Positions 1,302 through 42,807 of a stretch of DNA of 64,000 nt are shown here, piece after piece. The notes under the pieces were generated by a model. That model did no database searches. It saw nothing but the letters and a program-made list of their open reading frames with translations, and was not told the DNA's origin. Position 1 is the first letter of the stretch. Each line of letters starts with the position of its first letter. Where the stretch lies: positions 1 to 64,000 of the forward strand of contig JAGAVX010000005.1 in NCBI GenBank assembly GCA_017941705.1, written 5' to 3'. A program made the translations under genes and the position numbers. Source of the DNA: Atopobiaceae bacterium (GTDB lineage: Bacteria > Actinomycetota > Coriobacteriia > Coriobacteriales > Atopobiaceae).

Positions 1302-3203
1302 CTACCTCACCAGCAGACTCGCACCGATGAGCCCCGCATCGCCACCGCAACGCGCGATCTCAAAGCGCAGCCTCGTCGGATTGAGCACGAGCTTCTTGGC
1401 CTTCTCGTGCACCAGCTCTATGAACCAGGGGTTGTACAGCGCAACCGATCCGCCAAAGACGAACACGTCGGGATCGACCACGCAGCTCACGTTCTGCACC
1501 GCGGTGGCAAGCGCGTCGGCCGCACGGTCGATGACCTTACGCGCGGTCTCGTCGCCCTGCTCGTACAGAGCAAAGACCTCGGCGGCGTCAACCGTGTGAC
1601 CCAGGTCCTTGGACGCAAGGCGCCCGATGGCCGTCCCGCTCGACTGATCCTCGAGCGAGCCCTTGTTCATCGTCGGGCGAACGTCCTCGAACTCGTTAAC
1701 CACCATGTTGAAGACCTCGGCCGCACACGAGTTGGCTCCGCCCACGATCTCGTTGCGATACACGTAGGCCCCGCCCACGCCCGTGGACACAGTGAAGAAG
1801 AAGACCGACTCGTAGCCCCAACCGGCGCCGCACACCGCTTCGGCCAGGCCGGCAACGTTCGCGTCATTGTTGAGGAACGTGCGGTGCTTGGTTGCCTGCT
1901 CGAGGAAGCTCACGATCTTGAAGTCTTCCCAGCCAGGCAGGTTGGGCGGATTCAAGATCCTGCCTGCAGCAAAGTTGAGCGGCCCGGGAGCACCCACGCC
2001 GATGCCAGCGTAGTCGATACCCCAGTTGTCGATGCAGTCGACCAGGCGCTGCAGGTTCTCGGCAGGCGTGAGGCTATGGTCGTTGGGCATGACCTCCTTG
2101 GCCAGCTCCTCACCATCCTTGCTGTACAGAGCAACGCGAAGCTGGGTACCACCGATGTCGATGCCCACGCGATTCTTGGCGGCATCCGCAGAAGCCGGCT
2201 CCTCGGCAAAGTTGCCCTTGCCCCATGCGCCTGCGGTAACGGTAGGCACGTAGCTGCAGATGAGCATCATGTCGCCCTGCAGGGACAGCGTCCCCGACCC
2301 GTGAGGAGCCACGAAGTGCGAGCCCTTGTGCACATCCCAGCTCCCGGCGGGCGTCGACACCAGGCCACCGGCACCGTCGACCACCGACAGGCACATGAAC
2401 GGATGGTTCTGCGACAGGCTGACCGGAGCATCGGGCTTCACACGCACGCGCAGCACCTCAAAGTACTCGCAGCTCATGAGCTTGGTAACACCGTCGACCT
2501 CGGGCGCAGTCACCTCGCCGGTGGTAGGCGCCTTGGCACCGTAGTCGATCACGTCCATCGCCTGCTGCAGGTGCAGCTCACGAAGGCTGCCGTCGGCCTG
2601 CCGACGGTCGAAGTCATACACGCGATAGGTCACGTCAGACGACTGCTGCGTCTCGAGGATCATCGTACCGTCCATGATGGCGTGCATCGTACCGGGACGG
2701 ATGTCAAAGAAGTCGCCCGCCTTGATGGGCACGAGGTTCTCGAGGTCGTCCCAACGACCCTCCTCGACCATCTGGGCAAACTCCTCGCGGTCGTGCGCCT
2801 TTTGGCCCACGATGATCTGACCGTCCTCCTTGGCATCGAGGACGTACCAGCACTCGGACTTGCCCAGAGAGCCGTCCTCATGCTCAAAGGCATAGGCGTC
2901 GTCGGGATGCACCTGAATCGAGAGGCTCTCGCGCGCATCGAGCACCTTGATCAGCAGCGGAAAGCGATCGCCGACCGCGCCCTCAAACAGCTCGTGATGC
3001 TCGTACCACAGCTGGGAAAGGGTCATGCCGTCATACGGACCGCCATCAATCGTGCAGTCGCCATGCGGATGCGCGGCAATGCCCCAGCACTCCCCCACTG
3101 GTCCATCGGGCAGGTCGTAACCAAACTCTGCAAGCCTGCGACCACCCCAGATGTTGTTGTGCAGCACCGGCTTGAGCATGATCAGTTCAGGACAAGAGCT
3201 CAC
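1302..3203 (-). CDS. Bifunctional fusion: class I mannose-6-phosphate isomerase + ROK-family sugar kinase
   Basis: The N-terminal ~330 residues are a ManA/Pmi type isomerase (mannose-6-P to fructose-6-P): LKPVLHNNIWGG, then the metal-site region IQVHPDDAYAFEHEDG, KSECWYVLD and GTMHAI. The C-terminal ~280 residues are a ROK kinase with the phosphate motif VGIDIGGTQLRVALY, NNDANVAGLAEA (catalytic Asp), STGVGGAY and VFGGSVA. The usual ROK Cys-rich zinc motif (CGxxGCxE) is absent. The protein is 633 residues, about the sum of the two families. The GTG at 3203 was chosen because AAGGGG lies 9 bases upstream; ATG at 3212 or 3179 is possible. It would place kinase and isomerase for mannose or fructose entry into glycolysis on one chain. 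The domain assignment is firm; the kinase substrate is inferred. Confidence 0.88.
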   Translation of the reverse strand: MSSCPELIMLKPVLHNNIWGGRRLAEFGYDLPDGPVGECWGIAAHPHGDCTIDGGPYDGMTLSQLWYEHHELFEGAVGDRFPLLIKVLDARESLSIQVHPDDAYAFEHEDGSLGKSECWYVLDAKEDGQIIVGQKAHDREEFAQMVEEGRWDDLENLVPIKAGDFFDIRPGTMHAIMDGTMILETQQSSDVTYRVYDFDRRQADGSLRELHLQQAMDVIDYGAKAPTTGEVTAPEVDGVTKLMSCEYFEVLRVRVKPDAPVSLSQNHPFMCLSVVDGAGGLVSTPAGSWDVHKGSHFVAPHGSGTLSLQGDMMLICSYVPTVTAGAWGKGNFAEEPASADAAKNRVGIDIGGTQLRVALYSKDGEELAKEVMPNDHSLTPAENLQRLVDCIDNWGIDYAGIGVGAPGPLNFAAGRILNPPNLPGWEDFKIVSFLEQATKHRTFLNNDANVAGLAEAVCGAGWGYESVFFFTVSTGVGGAYVYRNEIVGGANSCAAEVFNMVVNEFEDVRPTMNKGSLEDQSSGTAIGRLASKDLGHTVDAAEVFALYEQGDETARKVIDRAADALATAVQNVSCVVDPDVFVFGGSVALYNPWFIELVHEKAKKLVLNPTRLRFEIARCGGDAGLIGASLLVR

Positions 3204-3570
3204 ATGAACCATCCCCTTCTGCAGAGAAGAACCTATGTGTATTTGCTGGCACGTCAACCATACCCAACCGCAACGCAAAGAGGGACCGCAACAAAGCAAA
3301 CGGAACGTATGAGACGCTCAGAGCGACCGGCAGAGCGATAGTTCGCGTTAATCTTGCGGTGAGGCTTGGTAGTTTTGCCATTATGCACTCCGCTACGTGT
3401 ATAAAGACATGTAGCGGAGTGCGCTGTGCGCTTACCTTCGCTGGGGCGGGAGGGGCATTGGTTGCCGCCGTCCCCCTCCCGCCCGTCGCGAAAGGAAGGA
3501 AGGGTTGCCGATGACCCGGGCAGGGGCTGGTGACTCGAGCAGAGGCCGCGTACGTGCGACACCCGTTGGC
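3204..3570. other. Gene-free spacer with two strong hairpins
   Basis: 367 bp without a supportable gene. It holds hairpin 3385-3422 (arms GCACTCCGCTAC / GTAGCGGAGTGC) and hairpin 3444-3484 (arms GGGCGGGAGGGG / CCCCTCCCGCCC). The second lies downstream of the EIIC gene on the minus strand and may end its transcript, though it has no clear T-run. The promoter of the ManA-ROK gene should lie around 3220-3380, where short A/T-rich stretches occur. Confidence 0.6.
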
Positions 3571-4911
3571 TTAGGCCGCCTCGAGCTCTGCCTCGGCAGC
3601 CTGCTTGGCCATGACGCGCTCATGCACCTTCATGAAGGGCAGGTAGATAGCCACGCCGAGGGCGACAAGGATCACCTGCAGGATCACGGCGCGGAAGTCG
3701 CCGGCCGTGGCAAGGAAGCCACTCAGGAAGACCGGGGTCGTCCAGGGAACCATGACGACGCAGGGGTTGATGAGTCCGGCGACGGTGGCGAAGTAGGTGA
3801 TGATCATGAACAGATCGGGGATCAGCACGAACGGAATCATCAGGGGCAGGTTGTAGACGATCGGGTAGCCATAGATGACCGGCTCGTTGATGTTGAAGAT
3901 GCCAGGGCCGAGGGCGAGCGAAGCCACGGTCTTGCTGGTCTTGTTCTTGGAGAACAGGAACGTGGCAATGAGCAGGCAGAGCGTGCAGCCCGAGCCGCCG
4001 ATGAGGCCAAAGGTGTTGACGATCTGCATGTTCATGTAGTGGTCGGGCTGGATGGCCGCAAAGCCGCCGGAGGCATAGGCCGCCATGTTGTCGGTGATGA
4101 GGATGGTGAGCATGGGCTCGGCAAGCACGCCACTGATCGCGCTCTGGTGGATGCCCAGGCAGAACAGCAGGTTGGCAGCGGTGTAGATGATCACGACGCC
4201 CCAGATGTTGGAGTTGAGGCTCTGCAGCGGGGCCTGGACGAAGAGCTTGATGAGCGTCGGCACGTCGGTGTTGAAGCAGACGTGCAGCACGGTCGCAACC
4301 AGGCCAAAGACCGAAAGGGTCAGCAGCATCGGGATCATGACGTTAAAGGAGTCCGCAACGGCGGTCGGCACGCCCTCGCCCAGATTGATCTTGAGCTTGT
4401 CGACGCGTGCAAGCTTGATGAACAGCTCGGTTGCAAGGAGACCGATGATGATTGCCGCAAAGAGGCCGCTCGTGCCCGTGCTGGCGGTGGAGAACAGGCC
4501 ACCGGTCAGCTGGACGGCGCCGGTCTCCTCGACCGTCACCTCGACGCTCTGCGGAAGCGTCACAAAGAGCGAGGCGAGCGCGACCACGGCGGAGGCGATG
4601 TCGCCCGAGTAGCGCATGTTGTGTGCGTGACGATAGCCAACGACCGCGCAAAGCAGGATGGCCGAGACGCTCAGCGTGCCCTGCGTGAGCGCGTTGCCCC
4701 AGTACTGGGCGTTAGTCAGTGCCTCGTCCGCCAAAAACAGCGGGAAGACCACGTTGTTGATGAGCACCGCGATGCCCGCCAGGATGTAGAGGGGCATGAT
4801 GGTCGCAAACGCGTCACGCAGCGAGCGCAGGTGCACCTCCGAGCCAATCCTTCCCGAGATCTCGGCGAACTTGTCCAAGAACGCCTGTCCCTTTCCCTGT
4901 CCTTCACTCAT
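3571..4911 (-). CDS. PTS system EIIC, cellobiose/lactose (Lac family) type
   Basis: A 446-residue polytopic membrane protein that forms the sugar channel of a beta-glucoside PTS. It starts MSEGQGKGQAFLDKF with AAAGGAA upstream. About ten hydrophobic segments follow, with the family's typical SLRDAFATIMPLYILAG start, GIHQSAISGVLAEP in the middle and PGIFNINEPVIYGYPIVYN (substrate-site loop, Glu) near residue 330. The C-terminus is KQAAEAELEAA. It lies 190 bp downstream of a GH1 phospho-glucosidase on the same strand, so the two probably act in series: uptake as 6-phospho-beta-glucoside, then hydrolysis. A matching EIIB is 6 kb away at 11039; no EIIA is in the window. Confidence 0.92.
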   Translation of the reverse strand: MSEGQGKGQAFLDKFAEISGRIGSEVHLRSLRDAFATIMPLYILAGIAVLINNVVFPLFLADEALTNAQYWGNALTQGTLSVSAILLCAVVGYRHAHNMRYSGDIASAVVALASLFVTLPQSVEVTVEETGAVQLTGGLFSTASTGTSGLFAAIIIGLLATELFIKLARVDKLKINLGEGVPTAVADSFNVMIPMLLTLSVFGLVATVLHVCFNTDVPTLIKLFVQAPLQSLNSNIWGVVIIYTAANLLFCLGIHQSAISGVLAEPMLTILITDNMAAYASGGFAAIQPDHYMNMQIVNTFGLIGGSGCTLCLLIATFLFSKNKTSKTVASLALGPGIFNINEPVIYGYPIVYNLPLMIPFVLIPDLFMIITYFATVAGLINPCVVMVPWTTPVFLSGFLATAGDFRAVILQVILVALGVAIYLPFMKVHERVMAKQAAEAELEAA

Positions 4912-5103: not shown

Positions 5104-6522
5104 CTACTTCTCGGCGATCACGTGGGAGCTGGCCACGCGCCTCAGCCAGTCGGCCGACTCCTTGAGGTGACGGTTGTAGTTGTCCTGCAGGTTGACCTCG
5201 ACGAACCCGTAACGGTTCTTGTAGGCGTTGTTCCAGCTCCAGCAATCGATGACGCCCCAGTAGTGGTAACCGCGGCACTTGGCGCCCTCGGCGATGGCAC
5301 GCGCGACCCAACGCAGGTGGTCGCGCACGAAGGGCACGCGATACGAGGCGTCCTCGATGCAACCGTCCTCGTCGCGCGTCGCATTGTGCTCCTCGATGCC
5401 AATGCCGTTCTCAGAGACGAACCACTCCAGGTCGGGATAGTCACGCGTCATCGTCATCGCGAAGTCGTAGATGCCCTTGGGGTAGATTTCCCACCCACGG
5501 CTCTCGTTCATCACGGCATGAGGCCAGGCATACGGTTCGGCAAAGCAGGGGTTACCAAACTCGTCGGTGTCCTGGGCAGGTGCCTGCACGCGCGTAGGCT
5601 GGTAGTAGTTGAAGCCTAACCAGTCCACCTTGCCCAGGGCGAGAATCTCCTTGTCGCCGGCACGCACGGGAAGCGTGATGCCACGCTCTGCCAGGGTGTC
5701 GATCACGTCGGTGGGAAGCGAGCCCTTCGTCACCAGGTCGAGCCACCAACGGTTGTGTATGCCGTCAGTCATGCGCACGGCCTCCAGGTCGGCCGGAGTA
5801 GGATCCTCACGCGTGTAGGGCGGCGTAAAGCAGTTGATGAGGCCGATCTTGGCATCGGGGCGCACCACGCCCGCTGCCTGCAGCTCGCGGAAAGCGCCTG
5901 TCGCCAGCGCGTGGGCGAGGGAGATACCATACTGCACGTTACGGGCTCGCTGGTAGTCGTGCACGAACGGGTACCAGTTGCCGTGCTCGTAGCGCTGCTC
6001 GGGCTCGACGATGGGCTCGTTGAAGGTGAACCAGTGGACGACCTCCTGGCCAAACTCCTCAAAGGCGGTACGGGCATACTGGGCATATGCCTCGACAACC
6101 TCGCGGCTCTCCCAGCCACCACGACGGAAGAGATAGCCGGGCATGTCAAAGTGGTACAGGTTGACGAAGACCTCGATTCCCTCCTCCTTTGCCGCGGCGA
6201 GATAGCGGTGGTAGAAGTCGGCGCCCTCGCGATTCAGCTTTCCGTTCGCATCAAGCAGCCGGCTCCACTGCAGCGAGGTGCGCAGCGACGAGAGGCCAAG
6301 CTCGTGCAGAATCTTGAAGTCCTCGGCGTAGCGGGCGCCCATGTCGTTGCCCGCATAGGAGCCCACGCGATTGTGGAACGCACGGATGTCCTCGTTTGAC
6401 CAGAGGTCCCACATGTTCTCGAGCTTGCCGTGCGCTTGCCACATGCCCTCGGTCTGAGGGCCAGACATTGCCGCGCCAAAGAAGAAGTCATCAGGCAGGG
6501 TGTCGTAGGTCTTATCGCTCAT
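5104..6522 (-). CDS. GH1 family 6-phospho-beta-glucosidase / beta-glucosidase
   Basis: A 472-residue glycoside hydrolase family 1 enzyme of usual family length. The acid/base motif is HWFTFNEPIV (about residue 165) and the nucleophile motif is FVSENGIG (about residue 370). An early FFFGAAMSGPQTEG matches the substrate-pocket start, and YHYWGVIDCWSWNNAY is the C-terminal aglycone loop. The start ATG at 6522 has GGAGGAAG just upstream. It is the first gene of a minus-strand unit with the PTS EIIC and is divergent from a GntR regulator with a palindromic site between them. A cytoplasmic role splitting PTS-imported 6-phospho-beta-glucosides is inferred from the EIIC neighbour; an unphosphorylated substrate is possible. 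Confidence 0.9.
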   Translation of the reverse strand: MSDKTYDTLPDDFFFGAAMSGPQTEGMWQAHGKLENMWDLWSNEDIRAFHNRVGSYAGNDMGARYAEDFKILHELGLSSLRTSLQWSRLLDANGKLNREGADFYHRYLAAAKEEGIEVFVNLYHFDMPGYLFRRGGWESREVVEAYAQYARTAFEEFGQEVVHWFTFNEPIVEPEQRYEHGNWYPFVHDYQRARNVQYGISLAHALATGAFRELQAAGVVRPDAKIGLINCFTPPYTREDPTPADLEAVRMTDGIHNRWWLDLVTKGSLPTDVIDTLAERGITLPVRAGDKEILALGKVDWLGFNYYQPTRVQAPAQDTDEFGNPCFAEPYAWPHAVMNESRGWEIYPKGIYDFAMTMTRDYPDLEWFVSENGIGIEEHNATRDEDGCIEDASYRVPFVRDHLRWVARAIAEGAKCRGYHYWGVIDCWSWNNAYKNRYGFVEVNLQDNYNRHLKESADWLRRVASSHVIAEK

Positions 6523-6560
6523 CGCTTCCTCCATTGCTCTTGTATCAGCTTTCGCTTTAT

Positions 6561-6580
6561 AAATTAAACGCTTTTAATTT
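6561..6580. promoter_or_regulatory. Palindromic operator candidate in GH1/GntR divergent region
   Basis: AAATTAAACGCTTTTAATTT has perfect 8-bp arms and a CGCT centre. It is A/T-rich in a GC-rich context and lies 39 bp before the GH1 start and 95 bp before the GntR start. Both position and symmetry fit the operator of the adjacent GntR/HutC-type regulator. Confidence 0.6.
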
Positions 6581-6674
6581 TCTTTGCAAGTACGTATTTG
6601 GAGATTTCCTAAGAGGTTCTCCTTCTGCCGCAAGCGGTCACCATACAATGAGAGGCAGGGGGAAAGGAACGAGC

Positions 6675-7394
6675 ATGCTCAAGTACGAGGAACTGGTCAA
6701 CACACTGCTGGGCGAGATTGCCAAAGGTGTCTACAAGAAGGGCGAGCGTCTGCCCACCACTCCGCAGATCTGCGAGATATATGGGGTGAGCAACACGACG
6801 GTCAAGCGTGCGATGGACGTGCTTGAGTCTTACGGAATCGTGGCGCGCAGGCGCGGGTCGGGCGTCTACGTCAAGGAGACCGAGGTTCCCAACACCGACT
6901 CGCACCAAGGCAGCAGCTCGCACCAGATGTCGGGCATGACTGCCGAATGCGCTGACAGGGGCCAGAAGCTCGAGAGCGAGGTCAAGTACTTCACGGTGGC
7001 AAGACCAGTCCAGAACGTGGCAGAGCGGCTCGACATGGATCCCGATGCGTTTGCCTACCGGATCGCACGCGTGCGCAAGGTCGACGACACTCCCACGGTG
7101 GTCGAGTACACCGTCATGCCCATCGACCTCATTCCCGGCCTGCGCGAAAGCAACCTCTACGGCTCCGTCTACTCATACATCGAGGATGAGCTTGGACTCA
7201 AGATCGGCAGCGCACACCGCACCATCAAGGCGGTCATGCCGACCGACAACGAGCGCGAGTGGCTCCAGATCGGCGACAACGAGCCGCTCCTCGAGGTGCG
7301 ACAGGTTGCCTACCTGGCCGACGGCACGCCCTTCGAGTTCTCGGTCTCACGCCATACGAGCGACTACGAGTTCTTCAGCGTCAGCACGCGCTAG
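6675..7394 (+). CDS. GntR family (HutC/UTRA type) transcriptional regulator
   Basis: A 239-residue regulator. Residues 1-70 are a winged helix: MLKYEELVNTLLGEIAKG, then TTPQICEIYGVSNTTVKRAM and GIVARRRGSGVYV. From about residue 105 a UTRA ligand-binding domain follows (FAYRIARVRKVDDTPTVVEYTVMP ... FEFSVSRHTSDYEFFSV). A linker of ~30 polar residues separates them. The ATG at 6675 follows AAAGGAAC. The family senses phosphorylated sugars; here the divergent GH1-EIIC unit is the obvious target, probably derepressed by a 6-phospho-beta-glucoside. The palindrome at 6561-6580 is the likely binding site. Confidence 0.9.
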   Translation: MLKYEELVNTLLGEIAKGVYKKGERLPTTPQICEIYGVSNTTVKRAMDVLESYGIVARRRGSGVYVKETEVPNTDSHQGSSSHQMSGMTAECADRGQKLESEVKYFTVARPVQNVAERLDMDPDAFAYRIARVRKVDDTPTVVEYTVMPIDLIPGLRESNLYGSVYSYIEDELGLKIGSAHRTIKAVMPTDNEREWLQIGDNEPLLEVRQVAYLADGTPFEFSVSRHTSDYEFFSVSTR

Positions 7395-41129: not shown

Positions 41130-42236
41130 ATGTCTAGCATCATCGTTATCTGCATCTTCATGGTGGCCCTTGTCGGAATCACGCTTGCCACCACCCCCTA
41201 CCTCATGCCGCCAACCGAGTGCTTCACCGTCACGGTGCCGCCCTCGGCAAAGCAGGACCCACGGGTAAGGGCCCTCTACCGCAGCTATGTCATGTGGGTA
41301 GCCTTGGCCACGCTCGCAGGCATTGGCGCATCGGCGTTCGTGCTTCCGGGGGCAAGCGACTCGGTCGCTGCGGTCACCATTTCCGTGGCCACGCTTCTCC
41401 CGATGGTCGCATCCCTCGCGCTCATGCTGCGCGCTCGCTCCCACGTGAGCAACCTCAAGCAGGCAGAGGGCTGGATTGCATCCGGTTCGCGCTCGGTCGC
41501 GTTCGTCGGCGGCGACGATGTTCCCCAGCCGACCCCACTCGCCTGGGAGCTGCTGCACCTGGTGATCATTGCGGCACTCGCGGCCTTCGTCCTGCTTGCC
41601 TACGACCGCCTGCCAGAGCAGCTCCCCATGCACGCCGACATGGGCGGTACTGTTACGGACTACGCCGCAAAGAGCCCGCGTGCCGTACTGTTTCCCATCC
41701 TTGAGGCCGTGTTCATGGGAGTCGTGTTCACGCTCTGCCACTGGGGCATCCTCCGCTCCAAGCGGCCGGTAGATCCCGAGGCCCCGGCCACCTCGGCCTA
41801 TGCCTACGGGCGGTTTGCCCAAGTCCAGAGCCTCGTCTTGCTGGTTGGTGGCCTCGCGCTCAACGTCAGCATGGGCACCGCGCTCCTTCTCTCGTGGCTG
41901 GGGATCATGGGGCTCGAAGCTTCCGGCATCCTCGTCTCGGTCGTCGCCCTTGCCTTTGTGCTGGTGGAGATCTGGGTTTCTGTGCGCATGGGACAATCCG
42001 GCGGGCGCATGGCGGCGGAGCTGCGCACAAGCGACGGCGTAGCGCGCGACGATGACCGCTATTACAAGCTGGGCTTTGCCTACGTCAATCCCGATGACCC
42101 GAGCATCTGGGTGCCCAAGCGCTTTGGTGTGGGCTGGACGCTCAACTTTGGGCAGCCGATGGCTTGGGTCACCATCGGCCTGTTCGCCGCGCTCGTAGCC
42201 GGCTTTGCGGCATGGGCCCTCCGTCTCGAGGGCTAA
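41130..42236 (+). CDS. DUF1648/DUF5808 membrane protein
   Basis: 368 residues with about nine hydrophobic segments. LPEQLPMHADMGGTVTDYAA is the DUF1648 (SdpI-related) motif, and NPDDPSIWVPKRFGVGWTLN is the DUF5808 motif near the C-terminus, as in Bacillus proteins regulated by YtrA-type GntR proteins. It starts right after the GntR stop and is probably repressed by it. Possible roles are envelope stress or immunity to peptides; the latter is inference from SdpI. Confidence 0.85.
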   Translation: MSSIIVICIFMVALVGITLATTPYLMPPTECFTVTVPPSAKQDPRVRALYRSYVMWVALATLAGIGASAFVLPGASDSVAAVTISVATLLPMVASLALMLRARSHVSNLKQAEGWIASGSRSVAFVGGDDVPQPTPLAWELLHLVIIAALAAFVLLAYDRLPEQLPMHADMGGTVTDYAAKSPRAVLFPILEAVFMGVVFTLCHWGILRSKRPVDPEAPATSAYAYGRFAQVQSLVLLVGGLALNVSMGTALLLSWLGIMGLEASGILVSVVALAFVLVEIWVSVRMGQSGGRMAAELRTSDGVARDDDRYYKLGFAYVNPDDPSIWVPKRFGVGWTLNFGQPMAWVTIGLFAALVAGFAAWALRLEG

Positions 42237-42242
42237 CAAAGA

Positions 42243-42330
42243 GCGGCACAGGAGCTCCCGGGGAACTTCTGTGCCGCCAAACATCCCCTAACGCAACGAA
42301 CCCCCGCATTCTGTGCCGAGGGTTCGTTGC
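42243..42330. repeat. Two adjacent hairpins downstream of DUF1648 gene
   Basis: Hairpin A 42243-42277 has arms GCGGCACAG / CTGTGCCGC. Hairpin B 42293-42330 has perfect 11-bp arms GCAACGAACCC / GGGTTCGTTGC. They lie between the gene end and the convergent small peptide gene; either could terminate both. Confidence 0.65.
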
Positions 42331-42382: not shown

Positions 42383-42670
42383 TCACTGTCCCCGCAGGAC
42401 CCATCCCTTGCTCCGGGTGTCACCGAAGATGTCCTTGTACTGGTACAGGTCGATGACGGTGGAGCACACGCGGCTGCTGGCGTAGCCCTTGGCGCTCGCG
42501 AGGTCGTCAACGATCGCTATGGGCCTGCCCGTCTTGTCGTCGACGACGTAGTACCTCAGGTACCCTTCCTCGCCGCGCGCGTACGGGGCGCGGTCGACGA
42601 TGTAGCCGCCGGTGACGGCGCTGAGCTGCTCGTCCGTGAGGGCCTGGGGGTCTCGAAACTCTTGGGTCGT
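42383..42670 (-). CDS. Small double-glycine-leader (RiPP/bacteriocin-like) peptide with no standard start codon
   Basis: The frame encodes 95 residues: a 22-residue leader (TTQEFRDPQALTDEQLSAVT then GG) and a core beginning YIVDRAPYARGEEGYLRYYV and ending KDIFGDTRSKGWVLRGQ. The LTDEQLSAVTGG pattern is the classical double-glycine leader cut by C39 peptidase/ABC exporters. AAGGAGG lies 7 bases before codon 1, which is ACG; there is no ATG, GTG or TTG in frame back to the upstream TGA. Either ACG is used or an ATG-to-ACG change has silenced the gene. The core has one Cys. No exporter, modifying enzyme or immunity gene is next to it, except perhaps the convergent SdpI-related gene. Confidence 0.6.
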   Translation of the reverse strand, partial: TTQEFRDPQALTDEQLSAVTGGYIVDRAPYARGEEGYLRYYVVDDKTGRPIAIVDDLASAKGYASSRVCSTVIDLYQYKDIFGDTRSKGWVLRGQ

Positions 42671-42807
42671 GTCTGTTCCTCCTTGTTTTGGTCTTGTTCC
42701 GTTCGTCCTTCACTGCCTACTTGTGCGCGCCTGGTGCCGGGGTGTCTCAAACTTTTTTCGACCCATTTGGCGGCACGGAAACTCACGATCTTGCCCGCGC
42801 ATACAGA

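What the first reader, a model, noticed from the sequence alone, without database searches (positions are those of the whole stretch)
42383..42670. Double-glycine leader peptide gene with ACG at the start position
A perfect ribosome site (AAGGAGG) sits 7 bases before an ORF whose first codon is ACG. No ATG/GTG/TTG exists in frame back to the preceding TGA. The leader matches LTDEQLSAVTGG, the double-glycine class, and the remaining 73 residues resemble no family I recognise. It is either a translated ACG start, a silenced bacteriocin-like gene, or a sequencing difference. The convergent neighbour is SdpI-related, a family that includes immunity proteins.
Basis: partly seen in the sequence, partly recalled or inferred. 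Interest (0 to 1): 0.75.

Follow-up and report, generated by a model that had tools for sequence, protein, structure and literature searches.

The report
Exported-peptide gene with ACG start
A rumen-type actinobacterium carries an intact gene for a small exported protein of an undescribed family, with a very good ribosome site but ACG where its relatives have ATG, so it is probably silenced or made only at trace levels, and whether ACG works here is untested.

Summary
On the minus strand, AAGGAGG (42684-42678), seven bases and ACG (42670-42668) open an intact 95-codon frame that ends in TGA (42385-42383). No ATG, GTG or TTG lies in frame back to the previous stop. The frame has coding codon usage; upstream sequence does not. 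The leader LTDEQLSAVTGG matches the published recognition motif of peptidase-containing exporters, and the genome has three such exporters, two with an intact cysteine.

The core is not unique. It belongs to an uncatalogued family of about 40 small double-glycine proteins in Coriobacteriales, plus one MAG labelled Lachnospiraceae. Nearly all have an ATG start, usually with a ribosome site. The closest relative (40-45% identity) also lacks a good start: one GTG without a ribosome site, although both genes share an upstream DNA block. Other family copies are decayed.

The convergent 'SdpI-like' gene occurs in 16 of 18 genus genomes, mostly without this gene, so it is not its immunity partner.

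Best reading: a real gene whose start has become ACG, probably ATG to ACG, leaving it silenced or leaky. A deliberately weak start is the main rival; the ribosome site is unusually open. A single-base assembly difference is not excluded. The bacteriocin label is untested.

The parts
42744..42755 (-). upstream box AAAGTTTGAGAC, shared with the closest relative (G012:C7)
   Evidence: this box plus AGGCGC is found once in this genome and once in G012, both upstream of the gene, and in none of 16 other genus genomes
42716..42732 (-). second shared block AGGCGC...TAGG; TAGG lies 24 bases after GTTTGAGAC in both genomes; possible promoter or operator
   Evidence: and direct reading; role inferred, no sigma-70 consensus found
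42678..42684 (-). Shine-Dalgarno sequence AAGGAGG
   Evidence: open RNA context
42668..42670 (-). ACG at the start position
   Evidence: coding usage begins here
42605..42670 (-). 22-residue leader TTQEFRDPQALTDEQLSAVTGG, double-glycine type with L(-12), L(-7), V(-4), G(-2)G(-1)
   Evidence: motif as published for PCAT substrates (PMC6959990)
42386..42604 (-). 73-residue core; predicted strands, hairpin YYVVDDKTGRPIAIVDD, helix, strand, helix
   Evidence: family alignment; AlphaFold2 model mean pLDDT 61.5
42383..42385 (-). stop codon TGA
42293..42330 (-). inverted repeat downstream of the gene, possible terminator
   Evidence: 14-nt arms, 93% complementary

Best explanation
This is a genuine gene of an uncatalogued family of small double-glycine-leader proteins in Coriobacteriales. 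In working relatives the chain would be made from an ATG, its leader recognised by a C39 peptidase-containing ABC exporter encoded elsewhere in the genome, cut after GG, and the ~70-residue core released outside the cell. In this genome the start has become ACG, most simply by one T-to-C change, while the ribosome site, leader, core and stop are intact. Initiation at ACG should be very weak, so the gene is most likely silenced or leaky, and recently so because nothing else has decayed. Shown: sequence anatomy, coding signal, family, exporters in the genome, ATG in relatives. Inferred: export, cleavage, the direction of the codon change, and the low expression.
For: Coding signal starts at the ACG. 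Perfect SD with open RNA. Homologues with conserved leader and core, nearly all with ATG and usually an SD. Leader fits L(-12)..L(-7)..GG. The genome encodes three NHLM-type C39 exporters, two of which keep the catalytic cysteine motif, and about a dozen other double-glycine or Nif11-leader ORFs, all with ATG. ACG gave 0.1-1.5% of ATG expression in an E. coli reporter (PMC6925171). The family decays elsewhere: two in-frame stops in G349, leaderless core fragments in G092 and G094.
Against: No orthologue close enough to show ATG at the homologous base: the nearest is 40-45% identical and itself has only a GTG without SD. No decay besides the start codon, and an unusually open ribosome site, both of which also suit a working weak start. 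Leader recognition by the genome's exporters is inferred from motif only.
Confidence: 0.5

Rival explanations
1. The ACG is a working, deliberately weak start codon. The strong, open ribosome site compensates, and initiation-factor IF3 keeps output low, as described for other non-canonical starts.
For: Perfect AAGGAGG and one of the most open initiation regions measured. In S. aureus, weak starts (AUU, AUA) carry extended SD sequences and give about 10-30% of AUG (PMC13009471). Streptomyces sigR uses GTC under IF3 control (PMC5472188). The frame is intact. The nearest relative also lacks a normal start although the upstream block is shared.
Against: ACG itself is not conserved in any relative; the near relative has ACG only out of frame at the matching place. 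ACG is among the weakest starts measured in E. coli. No reason is known why this protein should be made at trace level.
Confidence: 0.2
2. The base is a consensus or assembly difference (or a minority allele) in a metagenome-assembled genome, and the population has ATG.
For: Draft of 171 contigs; named near relatives are MAGs. One base would explain everything.
Against: The surrounding ORF shows no other error; random single-base errors rarely hit the start codon. Reads were not available.
Confidence: 0.17
3. Translation starts at GTG 42713-42711, near the GTG of the closest relative, and an indel or a +1 shift at the AGG AGG codons brings ribosomes into the leader frame.
For: The GTG lies in the shared upstream block, and the AGG AGG pair would lead into the right frame after a +1 shift.
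Against: No SD before this GTG. Codon usage between the GTG and the ACG is non-coding in all frames. AGG is not rare in this genome (6.3 per 1000). AAGGAGG just before the ACG would be a coincidence.
Confidence: 0.06
4. The gene is an older relic and the whole lineage (this genome and G012) has lost its proper start.
For: Both G000 and G012 lack a well-formed start; family copies elsewhere are broken.
Against: Both frames are open over 94-95 codons with coding-like composition; differences are more synonymous than not (pN/pS 0.7, weak because pS is near saturation).
Confidence: 0.07

Closest known systems
CtA/CtB, substrates of the exporter PCAT1 (Clostridium thermocellum)
   Same: Small protein of about 90 residues, 22-24-residue double-glycine leader with L(-12), L(-7) and GG, ~66-73-residue cargo
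   Different: CtA/PCAT1 was tested biochemically; here the exporter is not adjacent, cargo sequences are unrelated (the weak profile match covers only the leader), and the start is ACG
NHLM/Nif11-leader precursor systems (TIGR03796/TIGR03797 exporters, TIGR03793 and Nif11 leaders)
   Same: Same genome has these exporters and Nif11-like leader ORFs; leader ends in the same L-x4-L-x-x-V-x-GG motif
   Different: Leader is short and not Nif11- or NHLP-like by model score; core has no Cys-rich modification region and no modifying enzyme nearby
MAM of Faecalibacterium duncaniae
   Same: Proposed to be exported by a PCAT after removal of an N-terminal leader; core is a folded protein, not a classic bacteriocin (PMC12184118)
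   Different: No sequence relationship shown; MAM is very abundant whereas this gene should be barely expressed
Genes with non-canonical starts: sigR (GTC) of Streptomyces; infC, ccpN and cvfC1 (AUA/AUU) of S. aureus
   Same: Strong SD in front of a codon other than ATG/GTG/TTG
   Different: In those the odd codon is conserved and tested; here ACG is seen in one genome and is untested
DUF2188 (PF09954)
   Same: Weak match of 2 of 25 family members (best E 7e-4)
   Different: Only a weak E-value, and the window protein itself does not match; DUF2188 proteins are not known to me to bear GG leaders

Membership tests
Double-glycine-leader substrates of C39 exporters (PCAT substrates) | Leader motif L(-12)xxxE(-8)L(-7)xxxxG(-2)G(-1) | tested here: met
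   L(-12), L(-7), V(-4), G(-2), G(-1) present; position -8 is Q with E at -9 (against PMC6959990)
Double-glycine-leader substrates of C39 exporters (PCAT substrates) | C39 exporter in the same genome | tested here: met
   Three loci; two with the intact cysteine motif; none adjacent
Double-glycine-leader substrates of C39 exporters (PCAT substrates) | Cleavage after GG and export | not testable with these tools
   Needs an in vitro cleavage or secretion assay
Class II bacteriocin | Match to a curated bacteriocin family | tested here: not met
   No Pfam or NCBIfam match for the window protein at E<=0.1; only sub-threshold leader-type matches in relatives
Class II bacteriocin | Linked immunity gene | tested here: not met
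   The convergent SdpI-like gene occurs in 16 of 18 genus genomes, most without this gene; no other candidate adjacent
Class II bacteriocin | Antimicrobial activity | not testable with these tools
   None available
NHLP/Nif11 RiPP precursors | NHLP or Nif11 leader domain | tested here: not met
   No match of the window protein to TIGR03793 or Nif11 models; one relative matches TIGR03793 only at E 0.019
Gene with a functional non-canonical start codon | Odd codon conserved in orthologues | tested here: not met
   About 40 relatives examined; nearly all have ATG and none rests on an ACG
Gene with a functional non-canonical start codon | Translation shown from that codon | not testable with these tools
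   Needs ribosome profiling, reporter or mass spectrometry

The most novel reading that the evidence does not exclude
ACG is a functional start in this lineage: a very strong and unusually open ribosome site is paired with one of the weakest near-ATG codons, keeping an exported double-glycine protein at trace levels, possibly as a signal rather than a killer. The start-poor close relative with the same upstream block would be part of the same regime.
Probability: 0.2. Interest if true: 0.65.

Novelty: new member of a known kind. Interest (0 to 1): 0.4.

Why it matters
Gene finders that accept only ATG, GTG and TTG cannot report this gene, so the case shows how start-lost or weak-start small exported proteins escape annotation. 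The uncatalogued family itself, with about 40 members and a conserved core behind a PCAT-type leader, is a candidate set of secreted proteins of rumen and gut Coriobacteriales. If ACG were shown to work, it would add a codon to the short list of natural non-canonical bacterial starts.

Tried and rejected
SdpI-type immunity partner: rejected, that gene is genus-wide and unlinked to this family. Mobile element: the 15-nt inverted repeat flanking the gene (42267-42281 / 42766-42780) is partly the SdpI-like gene's terminator stem, and the pattern is within chance in the window. GTG start plus frameshift: no coding signal upstream of the ACG and no SD. A second gene in this genome starting at ACG: one further candidate (L107) has an ordinary ATG 18 codons upstream. 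RNA element: no Rfam match of note. Sigma-70 promoter: none by consensus. Structure: AlphaFold2 on a four-sequence alignment gave mean pLDDT 61.5, and PDB fold search gave no significant match. Plasmids: no match with one relative as query. Exact DNA around the start in viral contigs: none, uninformative for a chromosomal gene. A viral scan with the 25-member alignment could not run because no stretch is conserved enough. The 2017 E. coli study of initiation from all 64 codons is not held in the library.

Full report
OBSERVATION. The window is contig C125 of a 171-contig draft genome of 2.81 Mb. On the minus strand the sequence reads AAGGAGG-AACAGAC-ACG and continues as 95 codons to TGA at 42385-42383. 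In frame back to the upstream TGA there is no ATG, GTG or TTG. The finding is therefore real as written.

IS IT A GENE? Position-specific GC is 0.61/0.46/0.90, like its neighbours, and codon log-odds are positive along the whole frame and negative in the alternatives. Upstream of the ACG, no frame looks coding, so the coding signal begins where the ACG stands. AAGGAGG followed by ACG at 5-9 bases is not rare in the genome (77 sites), as expected where Lys-Glu codons inside genes spell the same letters. Of the 31 sites examined this is the only one with coding after and non-coding before the ACG. The spacer of 7 is within the normal range. The RNA around the ACG is exceptionally open: -5.2 kcal/mol for -30..+30 against a mean of -12.0 at 75 SD-supported starts (one as open) and -17.0 at random positions (0.5% as open) (shuffles agree, z = +2.5).

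THE FAMILY. A single-sequence search of 18 genus genomes found relatives in eight others. A profile extended this to the family and, with a broader profile, to two further families of the order. A MAG labelled Lachnospiraceae also has one (label not checked). All share a leader of the type ELTDEQLDxVAGG and a core of about 60 residues: Y/F-I after GG, a hairpin YxVxDDxxGxVxxxF, a helix with AxxxA, a short strand and a last helix. No Pfam, NCBIfam or PHROGs model describes the core. The best hints are weak: DUF2188 for two members and bacteriocin-type leader models for some. The predicted fold of the window protein is of low confidence and matched nothing significantly.

START CODONS IN RELATIVES. 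Nearly all intact relatives have ATG, usually behind a ribosome site. G093:C4 has an ATG without a recognised site, and a few others offer more than one candidate. The closest relative, G012:C7, 40% identical by BLASTP over 88 residues and 45% in the genome search, offers only a GTG right after a stop with no SD. The two genes share AAAGTTTGAGAC, then AGGCGC, then TAGG at an equal distance of 24 bases from GTTTGAGAC; the first two occur together nowhere else in the 18 genomes. So the two closest genes both have a poor start under a conserved upstream region. I could not explain this. It may be shared decay, or initiation that I do not recognise. Decayed copies exist elsewhere: two in-frame stops in G349, core fragments without leader in G092 and G094.

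EXPORT. The leader fits the published motif L(-12)xxxE(-8)L(-7)xxxxG(-2)G(-1) except that E is at -9 (PMC6959990), and V(-4) is as in the LahT substrate described there. The genome has three C39 exporters of the NHLM type. Two have the cysteine motif (ECGAA), while the third has DNAAA in its place. None is adjacent. About a dozen other double-glycine or Nif11-like leader ORFs in the genome start with ATG. C39 domains can be tolerant: LahT150 cut diverse Nif11 and nitrile-hydratase leaders and recognises about the last 13 leader residues (PMC6363468). An unlinked exporter could therefore serve this gene; that is inference.

THE NEIGHBOUR. The convergent gene (41130-42236) carries DUF1648 and DUF5808 behind a GntR regulator. 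It is found in 16 of 18 genus genomes, generally without this gene, and the contexts of other family members differ. The immunity idea is not supported.

MECHANISM. The likeliest account is a real secreted-protein gene whose start was changed to ACG. In an E. coli reporter ACG was in the group giving 0.1-1.5% of ATG (PMC6925171), so the gene should be nearly silent. Against simple loss stand the intact frame and the very open, strong ribosome site. In S. aureus, non-canonical starts come with extended SD sequences and give roughly 10-30% of AUG (PMC13009471), and Streptomyces sigR has a GTC start controlled by IF3 (PMC5472188). A weak working start therefore keeps about 0.2. A sequence difference keeps about 0.17, because reads were not available and no second genome of the species is held.

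NOVELTY. Small double-glycine proteins exported by PCATs are a known kind; this family is an uncatalogued member of it. The ACG is unusual but unproven. Whether the product kills, signals or coats the cell is open.

Noticed in passing
G012:C7 (L087) 5434-5764: The closest relative also lacks a well-formed start codon (only a GTG with no ribosome site), although its upstream block AAAGTTTGAGAC-N-AGGCGC-N-TAGG matches the window gene's.
   Followed up: partly
L088, L089, L091, L092, L093: In five genomes a sister subfamily of these double-glycine proteins (GG[YF]IYHD.GD...) lies next to a gene for a large predicted lipoprotein, usually convergent; the two copies scanned have no Pfam match.
   Followed up: partly
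G000:C77 (L086) 2472-4601: Third NHLM-type exporter whose C39 domain has DNAAA in place of the ECGAA cysteine motif, next to a reverse transcriptase-like gene.
   Followed up: no
G349:C160 2330-2566: Family member with two in-frame TAA stops directly behind another short double-glycine ORF: a decayed tandem copy.
   Followed up: partly
L046 5926-6243: A relative with ATG start in a MAG labelled Lachnospiraceae, which suggests the family reaches beyond Coriobacteriales or that the MAG is misnamed.
   Followed up: no
G000:C40 (L085) 1836-2096 and 6560-6856: Two double-glycine ORFs with long cores (about 60 and 79 residues) flank an NHLM-type exporter pair and are probable substrates.
   Followed up: no
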